DNA of 64,000 bases from Nitrosomonas sp. sh817. Its GTDB lineage: Bacteria > Pseudomonadota > Gammaproteobacteria > Burkholderiales > Nitrosomonadaceae. Shown piece by piece: positions 41,582-59,178 of the stretch (its first letter is position 1; each line of letters starts with the position of its first letter). Below the pieces are notes generated by a model, which searched no databases, was not told the DNA's origin, and saw nothing but the letters and a program-made list of their open reading frames with translations. Both the position numbers and the translations under genes were made by a program. The stretch is taken from assembly GCF_030908545.1 (NCBI RefSeq), contig NZ_CP133083.1:2551691-2615690 (forward strand), read 5' to 3'.

Positions 41582-42701
41582 TTGATCCGGCCAGATGAAG
41601 TTTGAAGTTTCAAGCGGCATATTTGACCCTCGGATCTTGAAAGAAGCTTTTGACCCGTTCGGGTGATTGTTCAAGTTTAACCATGTGTTCGGTGGCAGCG
41701 AGTTTGAGTTTGGCCTTGGTGCGCACCGGCACTTTCGTCCCGATGGCATGCTTGAGGTCGGCATTGAGGCGTTCCTCCGGATTCAGTTCCGGGCTATAGC
41801 TGGGCAGGTAGAACAGCTCGATTTTGTCTTGTCGTTCAGCGACCCATGCCTTGACCTGTTTGCTGTGATGAACCCGCAGATTGTCGAGAATCAAGAATAC
41901 CTTCTTCCCGGCATCCTTGATCAGCGCTTCGAGGAATTCGATCAGCCTGTCGGCGTTGAAGGCCTCGTCGATAATCATCCAGCGTGTTTTGCCCTGATTC
42001 GTCACTGCGGCAATCATCGATAGCTTCTGTCGCGTACCACCAGCCGCGTAGGTGACTGGCGTCTTGCCTGCCGGAGCATAGCAACGACCGCGCACATCGG
42101 TATTGACCAAGGCGGTTTCATCGCCCCAGTGAATCTCGCCGCCTTCCGCCTTGGCGCGCTTCTCAATTTCCGGGTATTGCTCGTTGAGCCAGGCTTGTAC
42201 GGCTTCAGGCCGCTGCTCATAGGCCTTCTTGATCGGCTTCTGGGGAGTGAAACCCCAACGTGACAGATAGTTGCCTACGCCGCGCACCGACAGCTTGATG
42301 CTGTACTCCCGCTCTATCAGTTGCATGACCGCCGCCCGATTCCACAGCGCAAATTCCATCTTCAGTTGCTCCGGGCGCTTGTCACAAATGATCTTGCGGA
42401 TGGCTTGTTCCTGCTCCTCTGTCAGTGACCGCCCTTGACCAGTACGCTTGCCTCGCATCCCTGGCTTCAGGGCGGAAAATCCGCCTTCTTCATACCGATC
42501 TATCGCAAACCGAACTGTCGGATACGAAAGCCCACTGAGCTCAACGATTTGCATCACGCCGTAGCCCTTGCGATGCAACCGCACCACTTGCTTGCGCCGT
42601 TCATGCAGTTGCTCCAGCGTCGAATATCTTGCGTCGTCTTTTTCCATTTCAACAAGATGGGGGGCGATTCATAAATTTCAAGTATTATTGTGCCGAGTCA
42701 A
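41582..42701 (-). mobile_element. IS630-family element, copy 2
   Basis: 1120 bases flanked by TA on both sides (41580-41581, 42702-42703), inverted relative to copy 1. It is inserted in the TAA stop codon of the upstream glycosyltransferase gene; the element's own TATTGA replaces it, adding one Tyr. Confidence 0.93.
41610..42647 (-). CDS. IS630-family transposase
   Basis: 345 residues, identical to the product of 16171-17208; same helix-turn-helix and DDE motifs. It is intact and transcribed in the same direction as the operon it sits in, so read-through could still feed the downstream genes. Confidence 0.95.
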   Translation of the reverse strand: MEKDDARYSTLEQLHERRKQVVRLHRKGYGVMQIVELSGLSYPTVRFAIDRYEEGGFSALKPGMRGKRTGQGRSLTEEQEQAIRKIICDKRPEQLKMEFALWNRAAVMQLIEREYSIKLSVRGVGNYLSRWGFTPQKPIKKAYEQRPEAVQAWLNEQYPEIEKRAKAEGGEIHWGDETALVNTDVRGRCYAPAGKTPVTYAAGGTRQKLSMIAAVTNQGKTRWMIIDEAFNADRLIEFLEALIKDAGKKVFLILDNLRVHHSKQVKAWVAERQDKIELFYLPSYSPELNPEERLNADLKHAIGTKVPVRTKAKLKLAATEHMVKLEQSPERVKSFFQDPRVKYAA

Positions 42702-45025: not shown

Positions 45026-45153
45026 AAAATGAAATCCACAGTATCGCAAGTTTTGTTATACGAAAAGATGATAAGCAAATGAAAAACTATTAGTTCCAAG
45101 AATAAAGAAAGCTGTGTAAATTTGCGGCCTTCATAACTCTGATTGTTACAGAA

Positions 45154-45351
45154 ATGACACAGCTTTCAACAACACACAAAAGCGACCAGCTCAACGCAGA
45201 AGTCGTCCAGGAAATTGTGGATGCCGTCACCAGCATCGACTATGGCTCGGTTGAAGTGGTGATACACGACGGCAAAGTCGTGCAAATCGAGTGCCGCAAG
45301 AAAATCCGCATCAATCACAGCGGGTCAGGGCGTAAGGCATTGAAATCATGA
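45154..45351 (+). CDS. YezD-like DUF2292 small protein
   Basis: 65 residues. The core VVQEIVDAVTSIDYGSVEVV followed by IHDGKVVQIECRKKIR matches the YezD/DUF2292 family, often encoded with sulfate-uptake and cysteine genes. Function is not known; its size and single beta-alpha fold suggest a regulator or small-molecule binder. First gene of the sulfur operon, 144 bases before the porin. Confidence 0.85.
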   Translation: MTQLSTTHKSDQLNAEVVQEIVDAVTSIDYGSVEVVIHDGKVVQIECRKKIRINHSGSGRKALKS

Positions 45352-45495
45352 TCTTAGAAATACCGCCAAGATTCGCTTGCGGCAAATCAACCGGCACCAG
45401 CAATCAGTAATACCGGCCAGTAACACTGGGGGTAACAGCAAAAACAATATCCGTAACTCAACCGGTAGACCGGAGGGCTTACTCAGGAGAATACA

Positions 45496-47172
45496 GTGAG
45501 GTTTCTTAAGTTTTCTTTATCTATTGCGGCAGTCATCTTATCGACTGCCATTCCGGCGGCAGCGTCTTCGGACGGCAAGCCTGCCTTAGACTTTCAAAAT
45601 ATCCAGAAAAGCATTGTCCAATTGGCACAGCAAATCGTTGCCGAACCCAGCAAACCGGCGGACCAAGCGAAAGAAGTTGAAAAAACACTGCCGGGGATAG
45701 TACCGCAAGCGCAAAAACCGGCAACAGCACCGGCGGCTGCGCAATCAACCAGTTTTCATCGCCGCTCGGATAGCTACGCAACCAATCCGGAATCGGATCC
45801 GCCGCGCTACGTGCGCCGGTTAAGCGACATCGGTGTCGACGCATTTAAGGACATTACCTGGCTGGATATCGGTTTCGAACACCGCACCCGCTACGAGTGG
45901 CGCAACAACGATCTCCGGCGTGTCGAGGGCGGGGAAGACAATCCGATCTTTTTCCGGCATCGCGCTTGGCTGGGTATCCGGGATATTTTGGATCCGTTCC
46001 GTTTCGCGGTGGAATTCCAGGATTCCCGTGTCGTCAACAATAAATACGTAACAACCGACCAGGAAAGAAACGAATACGATTTAATCAACGCCTACGGTGA
46101 GCTTAATTTCAAGAAAGCACTCGGCGCCGACGATCGTGGCAATGACCGTCCGATCCGCTTCCGCGTGGGCCGGATGGCTTACGAGACCACCGACCGGCGC
46201 TTTATCGCCCGTAACGAATGGCGTAACACCACCAATACGTTTGAAGGTTTTCGTCTGAACTTCGGACGCGAAGCCAATGACTGGGAACTGGATTTATTCG
46301 GTTATCAGCCGGTACGGCGCGCGCAAACCAAGTTCGACATGTCCAACGAACGGCTTTGGTTCTTCGGCGCCATCGGTCACTGGCGCCGGTGGTCCGACAT
46401 CATCACGATACAACCATATTTCATGGGGCAGAAACAAAATGCCGACCCCAATGGCTTCACCGCCGCCAACCGCCTGGACCGGGAAATTTACATGCCGGGT
46501 TTCCGCACCTATGGCAAGGTCGGCGATCTGTTTGACTTTGACGTCAGCTACAACCATCAATTTGGCTACAGCGGACCGCTGCGGCAGGATGCGCAAGGTT
46601 ACACCATCGAAGTCGGCAAAACCTTCAATCATCCGTGGAAACCGCGCCTCACCGGTTTTTATGGTTACGCCAGCGGCGATAAAGATCCCAACGACGGCGT
46701 CGACAACCGTTTCGACCGCTTTTTCGGTTTCGCCCGGCCTTGGTCGGCGGATCACTACGTAGTCTATGAAAACTTGAAAGCACCGAAAATCCGGATGGAC
46801 TTGCAGCCAACGCAGAAACTGGGGTTTGAACTGACGTATGGCTGGTATTTCCTGGCGAGCAAACGCGATCGCATGTTTGATATTCTCGACGGCAACATCA
46901 GCCAAACCGTCAGGGATCCGGGCTTCAACCGGGACCGCACCGGCCAAAGCGGCGATTACGCGGGACACGCGCTCGAAGGACGGATACGCTATCAAGTATC
47001 GCCGAGAATCAATACCGTCTTGGGCTATACCCACTTTACCGCGGAAGATTTCGTCAAGAATCGTATTGCCGCAAGCCCGTCTTGCGCGACCGGACACGCG
47101 CATCCTTGCGTCGACCACCGCTCAGGAGACACCGACTTTCTGTACTTTGAAGTACTCATCAGCCTCTTATAA
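45496..47172 (+). CDS. Alginate-export (AlgE)-family outer-membrane channel
   Basis: 558 residues, starting at GTG with AGGAGA upstream. A signal peptide (to about AAASS) is followed by a Pro/Ala/Gln-rich linker (about 60-85) and a predicted 18-stranded barrel from about 120. DRRFIARNEWRNTTNTFEG and TYGKVGDLFDFDVSYNHQFG are typical of PF13372. In this operon, between DUF2292 and the sulfate-binding protein, it is more likely an anion or organosulfur entry channel than an alginate exporter. That is inference. Confidence 0.82.
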   Translation: MRFLKFSLSIAAVILSTAIPAAASSDGKPALDFQNIQKSIVQLAQQIVAEPSKPADQAKEVEKTLPGIVPQAQKPATAPAAAQSTSFHRRSDSYATNPESDPPRYVRRLSDIGVDAFKDITWLDIGFEHRTRYEWRNNDLRRVEGGEDNPIFFRHRAWLGIRDILDPFRFAVEFQDSRVVNNKYVTTDQERNEYDLINAYGELNFKKALGADDRGNDRPIRFRVGRMAYETTDRRFIARNEWRNTTNTFEGFRLNFGREANDWELDLFGYQPVRRAQTKFDMSNERLWFFGAIGHWRRWSDIITIQPYFMGQKQNADPNGFTAANRLDREIYMPGFRTYGKVGDLFDFDVSYNHQFGYSGPLRQDAQGYTIEVGKTFNHPWKPRLTGFYGYASGDKDPNDGVDNRFDRFFGFARPWSADHYVVYENLKAPKIRMDLQPTQKLGFELTYGWYFLASKRDRMFDILDGNISQTVRDPGFNRDRTGQSGDYAGHALEGRIRYQVSPRINTVLGYTHFTAEDFVKNRIAASPSCATGHAHPCVDHRSGDTDFLYFEVLISLL

Positions 47173-47197
47173 ACCCTGTCTTTAATGGAGAAATAGC

Positions 47198-48199
47198 ATG
47201 AATATTAAAAAACTGTTCACAACAAGCATCTTAACCGCAGGTCTCATCGTCAGCGGTCACGCGCTGGCTGAAAAAACCATCCTGAATGTCTCATACGACC
47301 CGACCCGTGAGCTCTATCAGGAATTCAACGCAGCTTTTGCCAAATATTGGCAAAGCAAAAACAATGAAACCGTCAAAGTGCAACAATCGCACGGCGGTTC
47401 CGGCAAGCAGGCGCGTTCCGTCATCGATGGTCTGGAAGCGGATGTCGTCACGCTGGCATTAGCCAGCGATATCAACGCCATCGCCGAGAAAGCCAAATTG
47501 CTGCCGGAAGATTGGCAACAACGGCTGGCGCTTAATAGCACCCCGTACACATCGACGATTATCTTCCTGGTGCGCAAAGGCAACCCCAAAGGCATCAAAG
47601 ACTGGGAAGACCTCGCGCGTCCGGGCGTGGCCGTCATCACGCCGAATCCCAAAACCTCCGGCGGCGCGCAATGGAATTATCTGGCCGCGTGGGAATACGG
47701 CAAGCGGCGTTTGGGCGGTGAAGATAAAGCAAAAGATTTTGTGGCCAATCTCTATAAAAATGTGCCCGTGCTGGATTCCGGCGCGCGCGGCTCCACCACC
47801 ACCTTTGTCGAGCGCGGCGTGGGCGATGTGCTGATCACCTGGGAAAATGAAGCATTCCTGGCATTGAAAGAATACGGCGCGGAGAAATTCGAGATCGTCA
47901 TCCCCTCGTTAAGCATACTGGCTGAACCGCCGGTAGCAGTGGTCGACAAAGTCGCCGACAAGCGCGGCACCCGCCAGATCGCCGAAGCGTATTTGCAATA
48001 CCTCTATTCGGATGAAGGACAGGAAATCGCCGCCAAGCATTACTATCGTCCTACGAACGCCAAGATAGCCGAGAAATATGCCGCGCAATTCCCCAAAATC
48101 GATTTGTTCACAATCGACGATGCCTTTGGCGGCTGGAAAAATGCGCACAAAGTGCATTTTGCTGATGATGCATATTTTGACCAGATTTATCTGAAATAA
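47198..48199 (+). CDS. sbp: Periplasmic sulfate-binding protein
   Basis: 333 residues with a signal peptide ending in HALA. The family signature [19 protein letters not shown] and then [33 protein letters not shown] and WENEA are those of Sbp/CysP, which bind sulfate or thiosulfate for CysTWA. It begins 25 bases after the porin and four genes upstream of its transporter components, with an encapsulin pair and two other genes placed between. Confidence 0.94.
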
Positions 48200-48249
48200 C
48201 GATCCAATAGCGCACCTAAAGGTGCGCTTCCAGAAATAAGGAATTGAAA

Positions 48250-48582
48250 ATGACAGTTCTAATTGTCGGTGGCGATTACATCACATCATTCAAGCATTTG
48301 CTTTCTACCCAGCAAGATAAACATATCGAGCATTGGGATGGCCGAAAAAAAGGGTTTATTAAAAAATCATTCCCGAATGAAACACAGCTCGTGATCGTCA
48401 TTTGCGACTTTGTCAATCATAGCCTGACACATTCGGTTAAGAAAAAAGCCAGCCGTAAAGGCATACCGCTGGTGTATTGCCACCGTTCAATTAACGAACT
48501 GAAACATAAACTGCAAGGTAGCGATCAAGCCGATGAAAGTTGTTGTTATCCAAACAGCAATTCATTCAGGAGACTGCATTAA
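48250..48582 (+). CDS. DUF2325 domain protein
   Basis: 110 residues. The start at 48250 follows AAGGA. VLIVGGDYITSFKHLL and LVIVICDFVNHSLTHSVKKKA and PLVYCHRSI match DUF2325, a small Rossmann-like family usually with conserved Cys/His, often seen beside metal or sulfur genes. Two C-terminal Cys (DESCCYPN) could bind sulfur or metal. Function unknown. It lies directly after sbp in the sulfur operon. Confidence 0.78.
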   Translation: MTVLIVGGDYITSFKHLLSTQQDKHIEHWDGRKKGFIKKSFPNETQLVIVICDFVNHSLTHSVKKKASRKGIPLVYCHRSINELKHKLQGSDQADESCCYPNSNSFRRLH

Positions 48583-48646
48583 TGATTTTGTTGTTTAACT
48601 GCAACCGGTCTCTCTTCATCAAAACATACGGCAAGGAGATACACCC

Positions 48647-49468
48647 ATGAATGCATCGGTCAGCTATTCAGCCAGCAATAAAGACGAATTTGAACTCATT
48701 CAATCGGCTACTGATTATTCGTTACTAAGAGACGAGCAGGGTTGGATCAGCGGACGTTTTTACCAGTGCGAACTAACCAGCGTCTTTCAACCGGTTTTCA
48801 ATCCCGGCAGAAGCCAAATCATTGGACACGCAGCGTATATTCGTTCCAAATCCAATAGCGAACCATCACTATGGCCATGGCAGGTTTTCTCCATGGCATC
48901 GAAAGACGAACAATTGATTGAATTGGATCGTTTATGCCGGGCGATTCATGCACTTAATTTTTATTTTAATAGTACTTCCAAAACGGACAAACTGTTCGTC
49001 GAGGTTCATCCGCGACTGTTAGAGAGCGTCAAGGACGACCATGGCCGTGCCTTTGAAAATTTTCTCGACTTGATCGGCGTAAAAACTTCTCAAGTTGTCA
49101 TTGAAATTCCACAGACGGTCAATCGCAACTGGAAATTGCTACAACACGTCATCACCAACTACCGCTCGCGTGGTTATCAAATCGCCGCCAATTACAGCGG
49201 CACACAAAGCGATTGGATGGTGGAACTTGGCAGTTTGTATCCGGATATTGTGCGGATCACTGCAGGAGACTTGACTCGCCATTCCGATCTCGTTTCACTG
49301 GTGGAGACTATCCACAGCTTCGGATCAAGCCTTCTGGTAAGAGACATCGAAACATCCATTCACTTGGTTACCGCCTTACGAAATCAAGCGGATTTTTTAC
49401 AGGGAAACATGCTCGGCGAGCCGCAACGAGCCATTCATGCGCTTGAGTCGACATTCATTTCAAAATAG
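48647..49468 (+). CDS. Degenerate EAL-domain protein
   Basis: 273 residues with AAGGAG upstream. The fold is an EAL domain (TSVFQPVFNP, LFVEVHPRLL, VVIEIPQ, FLQGNMLGEPQ), but the catalytic residues are lost: the EAL motif itself reads GHAAYIR at 60-66, the metal-binding Asn is His, and the DDFGTG loop is YSGTQSDW. It cannot be a c-di-GMP phosphodiesterase; it may be a c-di-GMP receptor or a protein-protein adaptor. It is embedded in the sulfur operon just before the encapsulin. Confidence 0.85.
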   Translation: MNASVSYSASNKDEFELIQSATDYSLLRDEQGWISGRFYQCELTSVFQPVFNPGRSQIIGHAAYIRSKSNSEPSLWPWQVFSMASKDEQLIELDRLCRAIHALNFYFNSTSKTDKLFVEVHPRLLESVKDDHGRAFENFLDLIGVKTSQVVIEIPQTVNRNWKLLQHVITNYRSRGYQIAANYSGTQSDWMVELGSLYPDIVRITAGDLTRHSDLVSLVETIHSFGSSLLVRDIETSIHLVTALRNQADFLQGNMLGEPQRAIHALESTFISK

Positions 49469-49568
49469 ATCAACCAATGAAGGAGCCAATATCAACCGAC
49501 ACCAAACTGAATCTTTCTAAACAAGCCGTCCGCACAATGATCACATTATTTAATCCGAGGAGAATGAC

Positions 49569-50486
49569 ATGACCGATATTCATCAAGCCCATACCGCATT
49601 AGGCGATGTCGCAGCAAGGACGCTTGCGAACGCCACTAAAACCGTTCCAATGATGGGAACTATCACGCCACGCTGGTTAACCCATCTGCTACATTGGGTG
49701 CCGGTCGAGGCAGGTATTTACCGCGTCAACAAAGTGAAAGACCCCGATCAAGTCGAAGTGGATTGCTCAGCCAAAGATGAGCGCGAGTTGCCTGCTACCT
49801 TTGTCGACTATGAAGAATGGGGCCGGGAATATGTCCTAAGCGCGGTCAATACCGTGTTGGATGTTCATACCCGCGTTTCCGATCTGTATAGCAGCCCGCA
49901 CAATCAAATCCGCGAACAGTTGCGCCTCACGATCGAGACTGCAAAAGAACGCCAGGAAAGCGAGCTGATCAATAACAAAGAATACGGGCTGCTCAATAAC
50001 GCCGCAAAATCAATGCGGGTGAAGACACGAACCGGCGCCCCCACCCCTGATGATTTGGATGAACTGATTGCACGTGTCTGGAAAGAACCTGGTTTCTTTC
50101 TAGCGCACCCGCAAGCAATCGCCGCGTTTGGCCGCGAGTGTACCCGCCGCGGCGTTCCACCCCCGACTGTTTCGCTGTTTGGTTCACAATTCCTGACTTG
50201 GCGCGGCATTCCATTGATTCCGAGCGACAAGCTCAATATCACCGGCGGTAAAACCAATATCCTGCTGCTGCGCACCGGGGAAAGCCGTCAAGGCGTGGTT
50301 GGATTGTATCAACCTGACTTGCCGGGCCAGCAAGGCATGGGTTTATCAGTACGTTTTATGGGTATCAATCACAAAGCGATTGCCTCTTATCTGGTGTCTC
50401 TCTACTGCTCGCTGGCGGTATTGACCGAAGATGCGCTCGGCGTGCTCGAAAACGTCGAAATAGGTAAATATCATGAGTACAAATAA
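49569..50486 (+). CDS. Family 2A encapsulin shell protein
   Basis: 305 residues, no transmembrane segment, AGGAG eight bases before the ATG. TITPRWLTHLLHWVPVEAGI then the long N-terminal arm, and VSLFGSQFLTWRGIPLIPSDKL with MGLSVRFMGINHKAIASYLV match SrpI-type Family 2A encapsulins (HK97-fold shells), a family long misannotated as a membrane antigen. It forms a nanocompartment that takes in a cysteine desulfurase cargo. The cargo gene follows with a 14-base overlap, so shell and cargo are made together. Assignment by family recognition; assembly is not demonstrated. Confidence 0.9.
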   Translation: MTDIHQAHTALGDVAARTLANATKTVPMMGTITPRWLTHLLHWVPVEAGIYRVNKVKDPDQVEVDCSAKDERELPATFVDYEEWGREYVLSAVNTVLDVHTRVSDLYSSPHNQIREQLRLTIETAKERQESELINNKEYGLLNNAAKSMRVKTRTGAPTPDDLDELIARVWKEPGFFLAHPQAIAAFGRECTRRGVPPPTVSLFGSQFLTWRGIPLIPSDKLNITGGKTNILLLRTGESRQGVVGLYQPDLPGQQGMGLSVRFMGINHKAIASYLVSLYCSLAVLTEDALGVLENVEIGKYHEYK

Positions 50487-52158
50487 TTTCGAGCAACCGG
50501 CCAGTGACACACTAAACACGACGGCCGGCTATCTGCCGGATGTGGAGTTACTCACGCGGCTGGCGAATGAATATTTTTCTGCGTTACCGGCTGCCGCTCC
50601 GGCTTCAACCGCATCGCCCGCTGCACCGGTTACTTCGCCGCCTGCACTGGAGATTCCCGTATTCCCGGCAGATCATTTCCATGCGGGGAATTCCGCGTTT
50701 CCTCCAACGGGTACCGGCAACCTCTCCAACGTAACCATTTCCGCTGTGCTAGCGGCCATCCCGCTACCGTTCGAGGAGGAATTGCGCAACCTGTTCCCGC
50801 CAGCACCGCTTAACCCTGATGCCCATGCCGGCATCCCGGGTCGCGCCGGCAACGATTCATCATTCTATTTCATCGATAGCCTCGTATCACCGCGCGCGGA
50901 TGAAGCAACCGTTAAATTCGCACCGGCGCATCCGCCGTTTGATGTGAATGCGATCCGGCGCGATTTCCCGGTGTTGAAAGAGCTCGTGCACGGACGGCCG
51001 CTGATTTGGCTGGATAACGCCGCCACGACGCAAAAACCGCAAGCCGTCATTGATCGCCTGTCGCATTTTTACCGCCACGAGAACTCCAATATTCACCGGG
51101 CGGCGCACGAGCTGGCAGCGCGCGCCACCGATGCCTATGAAGACGCACGCAAAAAAACCGGTCAGTTTCTCAATGCGCCGTCGGCTGACGAAATCGTATT
51201 TGTGCGCGGCACCACCGAAGGGATCAATCTCGTCGCGCAAAGCTGGGGACGGCAGCACATCCAGCAAGGCGATGAAATCGTGATCTCCTGGCTGGAGCAT
51301 CACGCTAACATCGTTCCCTGGCAACAGTTATGCAACGAAAAGGGTGCGGTATTGCGCGTTGCGCCGGTTGACGATCATGGTCAGGTTTTGCTGGATGAAT
51401 ATCAAAAACTACTCAATTCACGCACCAAGTTAGTTGCTTTTTCTCAAGTTTCTAATGCGCTGGGCACCATCACGCCTGCACAACAAATGATTGCGATGGC
51501 GCACCGTGTTGGCGCACGAGTGCTGGTAGACGGCGCGCAATCGGTTTCGCACATGCGCGTCGACGTGCAGCAGCTCGATTGCGACTGGTTCGTGTTTTCC
51601 GGTCATAAGGTATTCGCACCTACCGGAATCGGTGCGTTGTTCGGCAAAGCCGAATTGCTTAATTCGATGCAGCCCTGGCAAGGCGGCGGCAACATGATTG
51701 AAGACGTGACCTTTAAAAAAACCACCTACCAGTCCGCTCCTGCACGTTTTGAAGCCGGTACCGGTAATATCGCCGATGCCGTCGGATTGGGAGCGGCGAT
51801 TGATTATGTGCAGCGCATCGGCATCGACAACATCAGCCGCTACGAGCATCAACTACTGGTATATGCGACGCGCGGTCTCAGCACGGTTCCCGGTTTGAAA
51901 CTGATCGGCACGGCACCGGAGAAAGCCAGCGTCTTGTCTTTTGTCCTTAAAGGATTCAGTTCCGAAGAAGTTGGATCGGCATTGAATCGCGAAGGAATAG
52001 CGGTACGCGCCGGGCATCATTGCGCACAACCGATCTTGCGGCGTTATGGCCTAGAAACCACGGTTCGCCCGTCATTGGCATTTTATAATACCTGTGCGGA
52101 AATCGACTTTCTCATTTCTGCATTACTTCGCATCCAGGGAGGCCGCTCCAGTTTTTAG
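50473..52158 (+). CDS. Encapsulin cargo cysteine desulfurase with N-terminal targeting domain
   Basis: 561 residues in two parts. Residues 1 to about 155 are Pro/Ala-rich and disordered-looking, with short conserved-type blocks LPDVELLTRLANEYFSALP and FYFIDSLVSP, as in Family 2A cargo-loading domains. Residues from about 156 (FDVNAIRRDFPVL) form a SufS/CsdA-type PLP desulfurase; Lys379 in FSGHKVFAPTG binds PLP and Cys517 in GHHCAQP is the persulfide Cys. It converts cysteine to alanine and transfers sulfur; in the shell the sulfur can build up. It overlaps the shell gene and precedes cysT. Confidence 0.93.
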   Translation: MSTNNFEQPASDTLNTTAGYLPDVELLTRLANEYFSALPAAAPASTASPAAPVTSPPALEIPVFPADHFHAGNSAFPPTGTGNLSNVTISAVLAAIPLPFEEELRNLFPPAPLNPDAHAGIPGRAGNDSSFYFIDSLVSPRADEATVKFAPAHPPFDVNAIRRDFPVLKELVHGRPLIWLDNAATTQKPQAVIDRLSHFYRHENSNIHRAAHELAARATDAYEDARKKTGQFLNAPSADEIVFVRGTTEGINLVAQSWGRQHIQQGDEIVISWLEHHANIVPWQQLCNEKGAVLRVAPVDDHGQVLLDEYQKLLNSRTKLVAFSQVSNALGTITPAQQMIAMAHRVGARVLVDGAQSVSHMRVDVQQLDCDWFVFSGHKVFAPTGIGALFGKAELLNSMQPWQGGGNMIEDVTFKKTTYQSAPARFEAGTGNIADAVGLGAAIDYVQRIGIDNISRYEHQLLVYATRGLSTVPGLKLIGTAPEKASVLSFVLKGFSSEEVGSALNREGIAVRAGHHCAQPILRRYGLETTVRPSLAFYNTCAEIDFLISALLRIQGGRSSF

Positions 52159-52194
52159 CATGAGTCACACTAATTTACTTTACGAGGTTTCTAA

Positions 52195-53025
52195 TTGAGC
52201 ACATTCAAGCAGCACAGCATTCTGCCCGGTTTCAATCTGGCATTGGGATTCACGCTGTTGTACCTCAGTCTGATCGTCTTGATTCCGCTCTCGGCGGCAT
52301 TCATCCGCACAGCCGAGCTGACTTGGCCGGAATTTTGGGCGATTGTCACGACGCCACGGGTATTGGCTTCGTACCGTTTGACGTTCGGTGTGTCGTTCGC
52401 AGCCGCGCTGGTCAACGCGGTTTTCGGTTTGTTAGTGGCGTGGGTGCTGGTGCGTTACCACTTTCCCGGCAAGAAAATCGTCGATGCGTTAGTCGACCTG
52501 CCGTTTGCATTGCCAACCGCCGTGGCTGGGATTGCACTGACTGCGCTGTATTCCGGCAATGGCTGGATCGGTCAGCATCTTGAACCGCTCGGCATCAAAG
52601 TAGCATTCACGCCGCTGGGTATTTTTGTAGCGTTGACCTTTATCGGTTTGCCATTCGTGGTGCGCACGGTTCAGCCAGTGCTCGAAGACATCGAAGCCGA
52701 ATTGGAAGAAGCGGCGGCGACGCTCGGTGCCAATCGCTGGCAAACCTTCTCGCGCGTTATTTTCCCCGCACTCTTTCCCGCCTTGATGACCGGCTTTGCA
52801 CTGGCTTTTGCGCGGGCGATCGGTGAGTACGGCTCGGTTATTTTCATCGCCGGCAATATGCCGTTAATTTCCGAGATCACGCCGCTGTTGATCGTCACCA
52901 AACTGGAACAATACGACTACGCCGGGGCCACGGCATTGTCGGTCGTCATGCTGGTGATTTCTTTCATTCTGTTATTAATCATTAATCTGCTGCAATGGTG
53001 GAGCCGCCGCAGCGCGCAAGCTTGA
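52195..53025 (+). CDS. cysT: Sulfate ABC transporter permease CysT
   Basis: 276 residues, starting at TTG with GAGG seven bases upstream; no ATG is in frame nearby. Six hydrophobic helices, and the coupling EAA motif [21 protein letters not shown] near residue 165. Subunit of the CysTWA-Sbp importer of sulfate/thiosulfate. It follows the desulfurase by 36 bases. Confidence 0.95.
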
Positions 53026-53032
53026 GGACACG

Positions 53033-53914
53033 ATGACGACGACGATTACATTTCCGGTATCCGGTAAAACCTTCCGGCAGCGCGCGACCGAAGAGCCTGC
53101 CTGGATACGCTGGCTTTTGACCGGAATAGCACTGATATTTCTAACATTATTCCTTTTTGTACCACTGATTTCGGTTTTCTATGAAGCTTTCAAGAAAGGC
53201 GTAGATGTCTATCTGGCGGCAATCACCGACCCCGATGCGGTTTCGGCGATCAAACTGACGCTGACGGTGGCGGCGATTGCGGTACCGCTGAATCTGGTAT
53301 TCGGTATCGCCGCAGCTTGGGCAATCGCCAAGTTTGAATTCCGCGGCAAGAATTTGCTGATTACCTTGATCGATTTGCCTTTTTCAGTATCGCCGGTAGT
53401 TTCCGGACTGATTTACGTATTGGTGTTCGGTTTGCAAGGCTGGCTGGGGCCGTGGCTGGCGGAACACGATCTCAAAATTATTTTTGCCGTTCCCGGCATC
53501 GTGCTGGCAACCGTGTTTGTCACCGTGCCGTTCATTGCCCGCGAATTGATTCCTTTGATGCAGGCACAAGGCACCGAGGAAGAAGAAGCGGCAATCGTGC
53601 TGGGTGCCAGCGGCTGGCAGACGTTCTGGCAGATCACGTTACCCAATATCAAATGGGGGCTTTTGTACGGCGCCATTCTCTGCAATGCCCGCGCGATGGG
53701 CGAGTTCGGCGCGGTATCGGTAGTCTCCGGCCATATCCGCGGCAGCACCAATACCATGCCGCTGCATGTCGAAATCCTCTACAACGAATACAACTTTGCC
53801 GCTGCCTTTGCCGTGGCTTCACTGCTGGCCTTGCTGGCTTTGGTCACACTGGCGCTTAAAACAGCGATTGAGTTTCGCACCCAACAACATCAAACACGAC
53901 GAGGTGATGCATGA
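53033..53914 (+). CDS. cysW: Sulfate ABC transporter permease CysW
   Basis: 293 residues; six helices and the EAA loop [20 protein letters not shown] near residue 180, followed by [19 protein letters not shown], a CysW hallmark. Partner of CysT in the sulfate importer. It is followed by an ATGA overlap with cysA, so the two are coupled. Confidence 0.95.
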
Positions 53915-54999
53915 GCATTGAAGTTCTTAATCTTTCAAAACAATTCGGCAGTTTTACCGCACTGCACGATGTCAGCTTGCAAGTCCATTCAGGTGAATTG
54001 CTCGCGCTGCTGGGGCCATCCGGCTCCGGTAAAACGACGCTGCTGCGCGTAATCGCAGGGCTTGAAACCGCCGACAGCGGTCAAGTGCTGTTTCATGGTG
54101 AAGACGCAACCGATCAGCATGTGCGCGATCGTCAAGTCGGGTTTGTATTCCAGCATTACGCGCTATTCCGCAACATGACGATTTTCGACAACGTGGCCTT
54201 CGGTTTGAAGGTACGCCCGAAGAAATTCCGCCCGGCGAAAGCGGAAATCCGCGAACGCGTGATGAAACTGCTGCATCTGGTGCAACTGGATTGGCTCGCG
54301 GATCGCTATCCGCACCAGCTCTCCGGCGGCCAGCGTCAGCGCATCGCCTTGGCGCGGGCACTGGCGGTAGAACCGAAAGTGTTATTGCTCGACGAGCCTT
54401 TCGGCGCGTTGGATGCCAAAGTACGCAAGGAGCTACGCGCATGGCTTAGACGGCTGCACGACGATATGCACATCACCAGCGTATTCGTCACACACGACCA
54501 AGAAGAAGCGCTGGAAGTCGCTGATCGCGTGGTCGTGATGAACGAAGGCCGGATCGAACAAATCGGCACGCCCGACGAAGTCTACGAGCAACCCGCCAAT
54601 CCTTTCGTTTATGAATTTCTCGGTAATGTCAATTTATTTCATAGCCGCTTGCATCGCGGCCGAGCCTGGATCGGCGATCTCGAAGTCGATGCGCCGGAAC
54701 ACGCCGAAGCCGAAGAACTGGCAGCCATTGCGTATGTCCGTCCGCATGAAATCGAAGTTGAGCGCATCCGCAATGGCGAAGCGGCTTTAGCCGCGCACAT
54801 CGTGCATATTTTGTCCGTCGGACCGATCGTGCGCCTGGAAATGGTGCGCGACAACGACGAGCATAGGAATCCGGTACATGCCGAAATCAGCAAGGAACGT
54901 TTCCGTGAATTGCAATTGGTAAAAGGCGATAAAGTCTTTATCAAGCCCAAGCGGCTCGATTTATTTCCAAACTATTCTCAAAGCCAGTTGAAACATTAA
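53911..54999 (+). CDS. cysA: Sulfate/thiosulfate ABC transporter ATPase
   Basis: 362 residues. Walker [10 protein letters not shown] near residue 34, signature LSGGQRQR near 133, Walker [12 protein letters not shown], and the C-terminal TOBE-like regulatory domain (about 240-355). It powers sulfate import through CysTW. It begins four bases inside cysW. Confidence 0.96.
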
Positions 55000-55071
55000 T
55001 AAGGAGCTTCTCATTTCAATCCGGCATACCGGCTACTCATATGCAAAAAAGCGCTCATAAGGATTCACCGC

Positions 55072-56025
55072 ATGACCGATGAAATAATCATGCATGATGA
55101 TTCACAGCAGGAAATCAACCACCGGGAAATCGATAACATCGTATCGAAGTTACGCACGCTGCGGCTGGCATCGCTGGAACAACGGCAACGGCTCAACAAC
55201 CCGCCGAAACTTCCGTCCCGTAAAGCACTGACCTCGATTCTCGAGCGTCTCAGCGCCGTATTGTTCCCGAATCGATTGGGTGCATCAAGCATCTCCAGCG
55301 ACGGCATCGATTATTATGTCGGCCATACGCTGGATATTACGTTGCGCGACTTGCTCGATCAGGTCCATCATGAGTTGTACTTCGTCTCCGAGCAAGAAAA
55401 CGGCGGCAATGCTGCTCGTAGACAAGCAGCAGACATTGCAAACGCTTTTGCTCAACAGTTGCCGAATATCCGCAGCCTGTTGGAAAGCGATATCCGCGCG
55501 GCCTACGAAGGCGACCCGGCAGCTCGCAGTATCAACGATGTACTAGTTTGCTACCCTGGCGTGACCGCCGTTATTCATTACCGCATTGCGCATGAATTGC
55601 ATCAACTGGGAGTACCGTTGATTGCCCGTATGATCTCCGAAATCGCGCATTCACTAACCGGCATAGAAATTCATCCTGGCGCTCAAATCGATGGCAGCTT
55701 TTTTATCGATCACGGTACCGGCGTGGTGATTGGCGAAACCGCTATCATTGGGCGCAATGTCCGGCTATATCAGGCAGTCACACTTGGCGCCAAGCGCTTT
55801 CCGGTTAACGAACAAGGCATGCTGGTCAAAGGTATCTTACGTCACCCGATCGTCGAAGACGACGTGATAATCTATGCTGGCGCAACGATACTCGGGCGCA
55901 TCACCATTGGTCGCGGTTCGACGATTGGCGGGAATGTCTGGTTGACCCATAGCGTTCCACCCGGCAGTCATATCATGCAAGCGCAAACCCGTAGCGAAAT
56001 GTTTGAAGGTGGTGCCGGAATCTGA
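55072..56025 (+). CDS. epsC: Serine O-acetyltransferase EpsC
   Basis: 317 residues, longer at the N-terminus than CysE. The left-handed beta-helix hexapeptides occupy the C-terminal third, with the catalytic His214 in FIDHGTGVVIGE and the GIEIHPGAQIDG repeat start. It acetylates serine to O-acetylserine, the carbon acceptor in cysteine synthesis. EpsC is frequently a neighbour of Family 2A encapsulin operons. It lies 72 bases after cysA. Confidence 0.92.
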   Translation: MTDEIIMHDDSQQEINHREIDNIVSKLRTLRLASLEQRQRLNNPPKLPSRKALTSILERLSAVLFPNRLGASSISSDGIDYYVGHTLDITLRDLLDQVHHELYFVSEQENGGNAARRQAADIANAFAQQLPNIRSLLESDIRAAYEGDPAARSINDVLVCYPGVTAVIHYRIAHELHQLGVPLIARMISEIAHSLTGIEIHPGAQIDGSFFIDHGTGVVIGETAIIGRNVRLYQAVTLGAKRFPVNEQGMLVKGILRHPIVEDDVIIYAGATILGRITIGRGSTIGGNVWLTHSVPPGSHIMQAQTRSEMFEGGAGI

Positions 56026-56158
56026 CATCGGTTCAAATGGTTTACGTGATTGAAATCCCCTCTAATTAATTGAATAAAGATAGTAAATAACCTCACCATA
56101 CTCAAAGATGACTGACAAATCTACAACCGATCGAACAACTTCTATTTGAACAATCACA

Positions 56159-57094
56159 ATGAATTTTCAACAATTGCGCATCATCAATGAAACCGTGCGG
56201 CGGAATTTCAATCTGACCGAAGTGGCAAGCGCTTTATTTACGTCGCAATCAGGTGTCAGCAAACATATCAAGGATCTGGAAGATGAACTGAACATCGAGC
56301 TGTTTATCCGCAAAGGCAAACGGTTGGTAGGATTGACCGAACCGGGCAAGGAGCTGGTTAAAATCGTCGAGCGGATTTTGTTCGACACCCGCAATATCAA
56401 GCGTCTGGCGGAGCAATTCAGCAATCACGACCAAGGGCACTTAACGATCGCCACCACGCATACGCAAGCGCAATATATCTTGCCGCCGGTCGTCGCCGAA
56501 TTCAAGAAAGCGTTCCCAAAAGTTCATCTGATCCTGAACGAATCGAAGCCCGGCGATATTTTATCGATGCTGATCGACGGCCAAGCGGATATCGGCATCG
56601 CCACCGAGGCTTTGGAAAATGCCGCCGATCTGGTTTCTTTTCCATTCCACACCTGGCAACACATCGTCATTGTTCCTGCCGGGCATCCGCTGCAGTCCGT
56701 GCAACCGCTCACGCTCGAAGCCATCGCCGAATACCCGATCATCACCTACCACCAAGGACTCACCGGCCGGTCACGAATCGACCAAACCTTTGCCAAGGCT
56801 GGATTGATACCTGATATCGCCATGTCCGCCCTGGATGCGGACGTGATTAAAACTTACGTAAAATTGGGATTGGGCATCGGCATCATCGCGTCCGTCGCGT
56901 TTTCCACCGACCGCGACACCACGCTGGTGAAACTGGACAGCGAATACCTGTTTGAAAAAAACACCACTTTCATTTCCGTCCGCCGCAATCACTATCTACG
57001 CGGCTACGCCTACCGCTTTATCGAACTGTGCACCCCGGCGCTCAACGAAGCGGATATCCGCTTGAGCGTCAATCCGTCGACGGATGCGGAATAG
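56159..57094 (+). CDS. cysB: CysB-type LysR regulator
   Basis: 311 residues. N-terminal winged helix-turn-helix (NFQQLRIINETVRRNFNLTE then VASALFTSQSGVSKHI) and a periplasmic-binding-like effector domain (about 90-300). The CysB/Cbl family responds to O-acetylserine, made by the EpsC gene upstream, and activates sulfur uptake genes. Last gene of the sulfur operon or an independent gene (134-base gap). Confidence 0.92.
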   Translation: MNFQQLRIINETVRRNFNLTEVASALFTSQSGVSKHIKDLEDELNIELFIRKGKRLVGLTEPGKELVKIVERILFDTRNIKRLAEQFSNHDQGHLTIATTHTQAQYILPPVVAEFKKAFPKVHLILNESKPGDILSMLIDGQADIGIATEALENAADLVSFPFHTWQHIVIVPAGHPLQSVQPLTLEAIAEYPIITYHQGLTGRSRIDQTFAKAGLIPDIAMSALDADVIKTYVKLGLGIGIIASVAFSTDRDTTLVKLDSEYLFEKNTTFISVRRNHYLRGYAYRFIELCTPALNEADIRLSVNPSTDAE

Positions 57095-58189: not shown

Positions 58190-59178
58190 TCAAGCAATTT
58201 TTGGATAGTTTGGGTGATAAGGGAGTTGTGTTTTTATAACGCCGAAGCACAAATGGACCAGCTTGCGCATAGCAGCGCCGATAGCGGACATTTTGGATTT
58301 GCCTCTGGCGAGTAACCGTTCATAAAGCGCCTTGACATGGGGATTGTATTGTGTGGCGACCACTGCTGCCATGTATAGCACGGCTCGCACTCGCGCCGGA
58401 CCCGCCTTCGACAATCGGGCCCGGCCCAGCACCGTGCTTCCAGACTGCCGTTTTACGGGCACTAAACCCAAATAAGCTGCCACTTGTTCGGCAGATTCGA
58501 AACGGTTGCCGTGCATGATCGCCAGGAGGTTATTTCCCACTCGCTCACCTACTGCCGGAATACTGGTCAGCAGAACCATATCCCGCTTCAGACCGGGATG
58601 CCGGTCGATGTGATCGTCTATCGCTTGTTGCAGCCGTTTCAATTCTGCTTCAAGAAAGGCGATAGATTGAGCGATAGACTGGACAATCAGTTCAGGCGTC
58701 TCGATAGCTTCGCTCTTTTCTTGCCGGTTCAATTCTCGGTGCAAATCATCCGCCACCGCATTACGCCGGGCTAGTAGTGCTTGTGTAATGCACGGACTTC
58801 CACCGATGGCGGCTGCCATGCCGCGGGCTTGAGCAGCGCTCCATATTTCGCCAGTACAACACTATCCACACCATCCGTCTTAGTGCGTATCCCCAAGCCT
58901 CGACCAAAATCTTTAACTTGTGCCGGATTGATGATCGAAACCATTACCCCAGCATCTACTAAAGCCAAAGCAGCTTGCTCGTGATATACGCCAGTGGCAT
59001 CCATTACCACGTGCAGTTGCGCAGCCGACACACCTTGTTTGGCCGCCCACTCCAACAGTGCGCTCACGCCTGCTTTAGTGTTGGGAATGACCTTGGATTT
59101 ACGTTTATCACCTGCTTCGTTAAGTAAAAGGCAACAATCCAATTTGGCCTTGGCAATATCCATACCGAGATAAAACAT
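58190..59178 (-). pseudogene. IS110-family transposase, frameshifted
   Basis: The N-terminal half (59178-58771) has the DEDD domain (MDIAKAKLDCCLL, VVMDATGVYHE, DGVDSVVLAKY), and the C-terminal half (from about 58790 to 58190) has the Transposase_20 domain with the Ser (LTSIPAVGERVGNNLLAIM, LGLVPVKRQSGS). They are in different frames because of an extra CA/TG pair near 58782-58786; without it VEVRALQALLARRN is restored. The stop codon TGA and the last Ala codon lie at the boundary with the host gene. Confidence 0.88.

What the first reader, a model, noticed from the sequence alone, without database searches (positions are those of the whole stretch)
45154..57094. Encapsulin nanocompartment embedded within a complete sulfate-uptake operon
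A Family 2A encapsulin shell and its cysteine desulfurase cargo lie between the sulfate-binding protein and CysTWA, all on one strand with EpsC and CysB after them. Sulfate import, O-acetylserine supply, regulator and sulfur-storing shell are thus physically one unit. Family 2A encapsulins with desulfurase and EpsC are known; having shell and cargo inserted inside the sbp-cysTWA set, with a porin and three other genes, makes a single sulfur acquisition and storage system that looks unusual, especially for an ammonia oxidiser.
Basis: partly seen in the sequence, partly recalled or inferred. Interest (0 to 1): 0.85.

Follow-up and report, generated by a model that had tools for sequence, protein, structure and literature searches.

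The report
Sulfur-storage shell inside sulfate-uptake operon
In a group of ammonia-eating bacteria, the genes for a tiny protein shell thought to hold sulfur sit inside the operon that imports sulfate, apparently under one shared control site, whereas in a sister group the two gene sets stay apart but carry copies of that same site.

Summary
Observation confirmed. In this Nitrosomonas genome a Family 2A encapsulin shell and its cysteine desulfurase cargo lie between an EAL-domain gene and cysT, in a one-strand run oscA–porin–sbp–DUF2325–EAL–shell–cargo–cysTWA–epsC–cysB (45154–57094). Shell, cargo and EpsC are ordinary members of known families. The order is not a one-off: 16 of 20 shell-bearing Nitrosomonas genomes in the family sample have it, 3 carry the cassette after cysTWA, 1 contig is too short. 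All 26 shell-less genomes that have cysT keep sbp–cysTWA, 17 with EAL directly before cysT; one filled/empty pair has 96–98% identical flanks.

The new part is regulatory. A 28-bp box lies upstream of oscA and occurs once in the 3.15-Mb genome. The wider control block is absent upstream of the shell in 21 of 21 embedded loci. In the Nitrosospira group, where the shell stands apart, the box lies upstream of the shell (9 of 9, up to 5 mismatches) and of the separate sulfate operon (6 of 6 genomes fetched). Import and shell thus look like one sulfur regulon, fused into one operon in Nitrosomonas. Sulfur storage is inferred from homologues; co-transcription and regulator binding are untested. New variant of a known kind.

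The parts
45070..45097 (+). 28-bp control box GATAAGCAAATGAAAAACTATTAGTTCC, only match in the own genome at up to 3 mismatches
45087..45130 (+). 44-bp conserved promoter-like block upstream of oscA
   Evidence: 16.9 bits with own and same-species rows left out, next best in the window -0.4
45154..45351 (+). oscA-like small protein, DUF2292
   Evidence: 52.6 bits, cut-off 22; ORF
45496..47172 (+). outer-membrane porin, Alginate_exp family
47198..48199 (+). sbp, sulfate-binding protein
48244..48582 (+). DUF2325 protein
48647..49468 (+). EAL-domain protein with degenerate catalytic residues
49569..50486 (+). Family 2A encapsulin shell
50473..52158 (+). cysteine desulfurase cargo with N-terminal loading region
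52195..53025 (+). cysT permease
53033..53914 (+). cysW permease
53911..54999 (+). cysA ATPase
55072..56025 (+). epsC, second serine O-acetyltransferase of the genome
56159..57094 (+). cysB-family LysR regulator

Best explanation
A sulfur-limitation operon that makes the sulfate importer and an encapsulated cysteine desulfurase together. Shown by sequence: one conserved control box upstream of the first gene; no second copy of the control block upstream of the shell, cysT, epsC or cysB; the same box in front of the separate shell operon and the separate sulfate operon of the Nitrosospira group. Inferred: a CysB-type regulator, perhaps the operon's last gene, acts at the box when sulfur is short; one long transcript gives porin, Sbp, shell, cargo, CysTWA and EpsC. 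Sulfate comes in and is reduced by genes elsewhere; EpsC supplies O-acetylserine for cysteine; the cargo, loaded through its N-terminal motifs, turns cysteine into alanine plus sulfur that is held in, or handed on from, the shell. In evolution, a shell cassette that elsewhere has its own control site sits in the operon of its regulatory partner without one.
For: Gene identities. Order in 16 of 20 Nitrosomonas shells, 3 of 20 with the cassette after cysTWA, 1 contig too short. Empty sites: 17 of 26 shell-less operons have EAL directly before cysT; in the pair G055/G027 flanks are 97.6% and 96.2% identical and break near the EAL stop and at the cysT start. Box: 1 match in the own genome, reversed-pattern control 0 in all 19 genomes. 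Control block absent upstream of the shell in 21 of 21 embedded loci (best -9.7 bits). Box upstream of the shell in 9 of 9 Nitrosospira-group loci: 7 with 0, one with 3, one with 5 mismatches; by weight matrix 7 of 8 tested at 3 bits or more against a mean of 0.02 for permuted matrices. Box upstream of the sulfate operon in 6 of 6 Nitrosospira-group genomes fetched for it. Two SAT genes in 11 of 16 shell genomes and 0 of 45 others (Fisher 1e-8). In a 300-genome order sample cysT is in 29 of 29 genomes with a shell over cut-off and 92 of 271 others (Fisher 3.8e-13; relatedness not removed, by genus 23 of 23 against 47 of 111). Close match to SrpI and counterparts of its cargo motifs. SrpI and its cargo rise on sulfur starvation in Synechococcus (PMC8049743, section 6).
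Against: No transcript data. What binds the box is unknown; CysB is a guess from neighbourhood. The EAL-shell spacer is 100 bp and the epsC-cysB spacer 133 bp, room for promoters of another kind. The control block has two sub-forms in Nitrosomonas; several embedded relatives (e.g. G029, G044, G046) lack the 28-bp form at 3 mismatches and are joined to it only by the 44-bp matrix, which assumes one site per row. Methylophilaceae-type loci have the block before cysT (8 of 12 rows, 6 of 10 once two duplicate loci are removed) but not before epsC-shell (0 of 13 rows, 11 distinct); Methylococcales 0 of 18 and the order sample 0 of 19 before epsC, so the shared site is local to Nitrosomonadaceae. 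EpsC is missing from 5 of the 15 embedded Nitrosomonas loci where it could be seen. Of 9 box places fetched outside shell loci, 2 lie before genes without a Pfam match and 1 before a weak, below-cut-off sulfur-transport match. SrpI and cargo knock-outs showed no growth defect, fed or starved. Three distant SulP genes exist, so CysTWA may not be the only sulfate route. One below-cut-off shell-like match (G354, 264 bits) lies in a genome without cysT.
Confidence: 0.68

Rival explanations
1. Neighbourhood without coupling: the shell pair landed in a co-oriented operon and is kept there by inheritance; it is expressed from its own unrelated promoter in the 100-bp spacer and its position means little.
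For: A single origin of the EAL-shell junction is not excluded: embedded types and the sister genus fall together in the shell+cargo tree (92% support, open forks). Spacer long enough for a promoter. In most of the order the shell is far from cysT (19 of 29 not within 10 kb on the same contig, some on other or short contigs).
Against: Two other placements (after cysTWA in 3 genomes; the sister genus without cysTWA in 2) also lie in the same operon and also lack their own block. The stand-alone form carries the same box. Linkage to cysT within 10 kb in 7 of 26 order-sample genomes outside Nitrosomonas, where about 0.1 would be expected for one cysT in a 4-Mb genome (my estimate).
Confidence: 0.2
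2. The shell is not a store but a protected, activated desulfurase that recycles cysteine sulfur to acceptors during starvation.
For: Encapsulation raises desulfurase activity in Synechococcus (PMC8049743 abstract and passages); a handing-on role is proposed in PMC8346489 (passages). Induction by starvation fits recycling more simply than storage.
Against: A sulfur-storing role of a related encapsulin has been published (recalled, paper not held). I did not look for a rhodanese or other acceptor by its own model; none of the twelve genes here is one.
Confidence: 0.4
3. Regulatory fusion is ancestral in the family, and the Nitrosospira group split it, duplicating the box.
For: The embedded form occurs in two genera and the separate form in one group; the root is not settled.
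Against: epsC-shell-cargo as a stand-alone cassette is the rule elsewhere in the order (25 of 26), which favours separate as the older state.
Confidence: 0.25

Closest known systems
Synechococcus elongatus SrpI/CyD Family 2A encapsulin (6X8M, 6X8T)
   Same: Shell aligns over residues 7-305; residues matching SrpI R192, G194, P196, F262 and Y273 are kept. Cargo has LTRLANEYFS and SSFYFIDS where the paper gives LARLANEFFS and AASPYYFLDG.
   Different: Here the pair lies inside a sulfate ABC-importer operon with one shared control box.
Family 2A desulfurase operons with serine O-acetyltransferase (PMC8346489, passages seen)
   Same: Shell, cargo and SAT.
   Different: Shell-cargo is parted from epsC by cysTWA; the passages seen name SAT and rhodanese as the enriched accessories. 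The supplementary neighbour tables of both papers could not be read, so earlier notice of cysTWA neighbours cannot be excluded.
Nitrosospira-group shell operon (shell-cargo-(epsC)-cysB) and its separate sulfate operon
   Same: Same genes and the same 28-bp box.
   Different: Two operons, each with a box, instead of one.
Pseudomonas oscA-sbp-cysTWA sulfur-starvation operon (recalled, not tested)
   Same: A small DUF2292-type gene leads a sulfate operon.
   Different: No encapsulin there as far as I recall.

Membership tests
Family 2A encapsulin | Shell over the Family 2A model cut-off, without the cNMP domain of Family 2B | tested here: met
   NF041162 537.2 bits against 380, residues 11-304; best Family 2B stretch covers residues 60-299 only, profile 210-449
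Family 2A encapsulin | Adjacent cysteine desulfurase cargo with an N-terminal loading region | tested here: met
   NF041166 898.2 bits against 800; motifs at 27-36 and 129-136 beside the published pair
Family 2A encapsulin | Cargo has PLP lysine and active cysteine | tested here: met
   SGHK 376-379 and RAGHHC 512-517; their roles are recalled from SufS
Family 2A encapsulin | Assembles into an icosahedral shell that loads the cargo | not testable with these tools
   needs expression and electron microscopy
Sulfur-storing encapsulin | Elemental sulfur inside the shell | not testable with these tools
   no biochemical data here
Sbp-CysTWA sulfate ABC importer | Sulfate-family binding protein, two permeases, ATPase | tested here: met
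   (CysA by Pfam only)
CysB regulon | Control box bound by the CysB-family protein | not testable with these tools
   box conserved; binder unknown
EAL phosphodiesterase | EAL glutamate, metal ligands and lysine | tested here: not met
   E62 position is Ala in 32 of 38 distinct homologues at 50% identity or more and the Lys position is Arg in 37 of 38; below 50% identity Glu and Lys are kept in 21 of 24 (positions from the YkuI alignment)

The most novel reading that the evidence does not exclude
An import-and-store operon: an exchangeable encapsulin cassette plugged gene-precisely into the sulfate importer's operon and gave up (or never had) its own starvation switch, so each burst of high-affinity sulfate import is matched by new sulfur-holding shells. 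The shells would catch the overshoot when sulfate returns, which would explain why a storage device is induced by starvation.
Probability: 0.35. Interest if true: 0.72.

Novelty: new variant of a known kind. Interest (0 to 1): 0.5.

Why it matters
Why a cell makes a sulfur-holding shell when sulfur is scarce is open. Here the shell is tied to the importer by position and by a shared control box, and near-identical relatives with and without the shell pair exist (G027 and G055), a natural experiment. It gives a defined promoter, a testable single transcript and matched plus/minus strains, in bacteria that drive nitrification.

Tried and rejected
Generic promoter/terminator scan: at shuffle level, not used. 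Rfam and tRNA scans of the window: nothing. DUF2325: no solved relative and no functional paper among 4 listed; it is named a possible secondary cargo in an anammox encapsulin system (PMC6934571 passage), which I could not test here. Claim that this is the genome's only sulfate route: dropped, because 3 distant SulP genes exist. Simple recent deletion as the cause of the empty G055 site: disfavoured, because its spacer resembles those of other empty loci and not the filled junctions (by eye); allele replacement fits better, direction unsettled. The backbone tree needs 9 changes of shell presence, so gains, losses or exchange cannot be told apart. EpsC tree: the operon copies of embedded loci form one clade with those of the cassette-after type next to them; the housekeeping copy of the own genome falls with other cassette EpsCs, so no clean storage-type EpsC class exists. 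A Fisher value for 7 of 8 against 0 of 19 used an outdated count and is not used. Phylum sample: 17 of 398 genomes over cut-off, 4 of them with long frames typical of Family 2B, too few outside the order to extend the cysT test. Paper searches for encapsulin with sulfate transport, Nitrosomonas, CysB, Nitrosospira and related terms listed no paper on this arrangement; most subscription papers are not in that library.
Full report
What is there. Twelve co-directional genes run from 45154 to 57094: oscA-like DUF2292, porin, sbp, DUF2325, EAL, Family 2A shell, desulfurase cargo, cysT, cysW, cysA, epsC, cysB. Identities come from Pfam and NCBIfam. Spacers are 25, 44, 64, 100, -14, 36, 7, -4, 72 and 133 bp after a 144-bp gap behind oscA. 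A best-matching named locus (L017, a Nitrosomonas MAG) is 97-100% identical across eleven of these proteins, so the host is Nitrosomonas.

Shell and cargo. The shell aligns over residues 7-305 with SrpI and keeps the residues matching SrpI R192, G194, P196, F262 and Y273. The cargo has a 152-residue leader, 51% Ala/Pro/Ser/Thr/Gly, with LTRLANEYFS at 27-36 and SSFYFIDS at 129-136. PMC8049743 gives LARLANEFFS and AASPYYFLDG as motifs of such leaders and shows the leader is needed for loading (passages). Over 33 sampled loci the leader is poorly conserved outside these motifs (mean share of the commonest residue 0.35-0.60) and the catalytic part well conserved (0.85).

How common is the arrangement. 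In a 61-genome genus sample the shell is in 16, cysT in 41, one copy each: 15 of 16 shell genomes (the exception is a 76% complete MAG) and 26 of 45 others. In the family sample 31 of 125 genomes have a shell over cut-off and one more a fragment: 20 Nitrosomonas, 2 of a sister genus, 9 of a group that includes Nitrosospira and Nitrosovibrio (plus the fragment). Of the 20, 16 have EAL-shell-cargo-cysT (G050 seen only as far as cysT; G028 read in L018, checked), 3 (G037, G038, G077) have cysTWA-epsC-shell-cargo-cysB, and G003 ends after the cargo. The sister genus has sbp-EAL-shell-cargo-epsC-cysB without cysTWA beside it (2 of 2). In the Nitrosospira group the shell operon is apart, followed by cargo and cysB in 8 of 9 (the ninth contig is short).

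Empty sites. All 26 shell-less genus genomes with cysT keep sbp-cysTWA; 17 have EAL directly before cysT and 9 have no EAL match there. G055 (empty) and G027 (filled) share 97.6% and 96.2% identical flanks; similarity stops near the EAL end and resumes at the cysT start. The G055 spacer looks like other empty spacers, not like the filled junctions (by eye). This suggests exchange of whole alleles. Shell presence needs 9 changes on the transporter tree; the shell+cargo tree groups embedded types with the sister genus (92%), apart from the after-cysTWA type and the Nitrosospira group.

Control box. In 37 of 51 loci given, those where oscA was found, a motif search that assumes one site per row places a 44-bp block 23-57 bp upstream of oscA. 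Left out with its same-species row, the own site still scores 16.9 bits; the next best place in the 64-kb window scores -0.4. The own form contains a 28-bp box at 45070-45097, matched once in the own genome at up to 3 mismatches; the reversed control gave 0 in all 19 genomes, and 16 of 19 had the box (the 3 without, G029, G044 and G046, carry the other sub-form of the block). Upstream of the shell the block is absent in 21 of 21 embedded loci of all three kinds (best -9.7 bits), and it is absent before cysT (14 loci), epsC (8) and cysB (6).

In the Nitrosospira group the box lies 204-524 bp upstream of the shell in 9 of 9 loci, 7 of them without mismatch. The matrix, trained without them, gave 3 bits or more in 7 of 8 against a mean of 0.02 for permuted matrices. 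Further box places in six of these genomes lie upstream of a separate porin-sbp-EAL-cysTWA operon, 6 of 6, with DUF2325 in 5. Three more places fetched were not such operons: one before a weak sulfur-transport match below cut-off, two before genes without a Pfam match. So shell and sulfate operon share a control site in both groups, and where they are fused one copy serves.

Wider. In a 300-genome order sample 29 genomes have a shell over cut-off, all 29 with cysT, against 92 of 271 others (p=3.8e-13, relatedness not removed; genera 23 of 23 against 47 of 111). cysT is within 10 kb of the shell in 10 of 29, 7 of them outside Nitrosomonas. epsC is directly upstream of the shell in 25 of the 26 non-Nitrosomonas genomes (the other contig is 3 kb). 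Of 80 named loci 43 hold cysT. The control block is found before cysT in Methylophilaceae-type loci (6 of 10 distinct) but not before epsC there (0 of 11), nor before epsC in Methylococcales (0 of 18) or the order sample (0 of 19).

EpsC. Genomes with two serine acetyltransferases number 11 of 61, all among the 16 with a shell (p=1e-8). The own operon copy is 68% identical to the genome's other copy. EpsC is not obligatory: it is missing in 5 of the 15 embedded loci where it could be seen.

Reading. Co-expression of importer and encapsulated desulfurase under sulfur limitation is the best-supported claim, by shared control site and conserved position. Whether the shell stores sulfur or recycles it is open. 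SrpI and its cargo rise in starved Synechococcus, yet knock-outs grew normally (PMC8049743 section 6). Storage in a related system is recalled, not read here.

Noticed in passing
48647-49468: The EAL protein between sbp and cysT has lost most catalytic residues in Nitrosomonas, while distant homologues, many of them in the same sbp-EAL-cysT position in methylotrophs, keep them: an enzyme turned into a likely non-catalytic part of the sulfate operon.
   Followed up: partly
48244-48582: DUF2325 protein conserved in the sulfate operon with and without the shell; DUF2325 is also named as possible secondary cargo of an anammox encapsulin system (PMC6934571 passage).
   Followed up: partly
L185, L187: Sister-genus operon holds sbp, EAL, shell, cargo, epsC and cysB but no cysTWA; what takes in the sulfate there is unknown.
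   Followed up: no
L196: G098 of the Nitrosospira group holds only a shell fragment with a stop; the gene appears lost.
   Followed up: no
L159: Two EAL copies in tandem before the shell in G041; tandem copies also in G018 and G038.
   Followed up: no
58190-59178: IS110-type transposase in two overlapping frames just downstream of the operon, and a DDE transposase at 41610-42647 upstream.
   Followed up: no
L249: In G105 a box match lies upstream of a weak Sulf_transp (YeeE-type) match, a possible further regulon member.
   Followed up: partly
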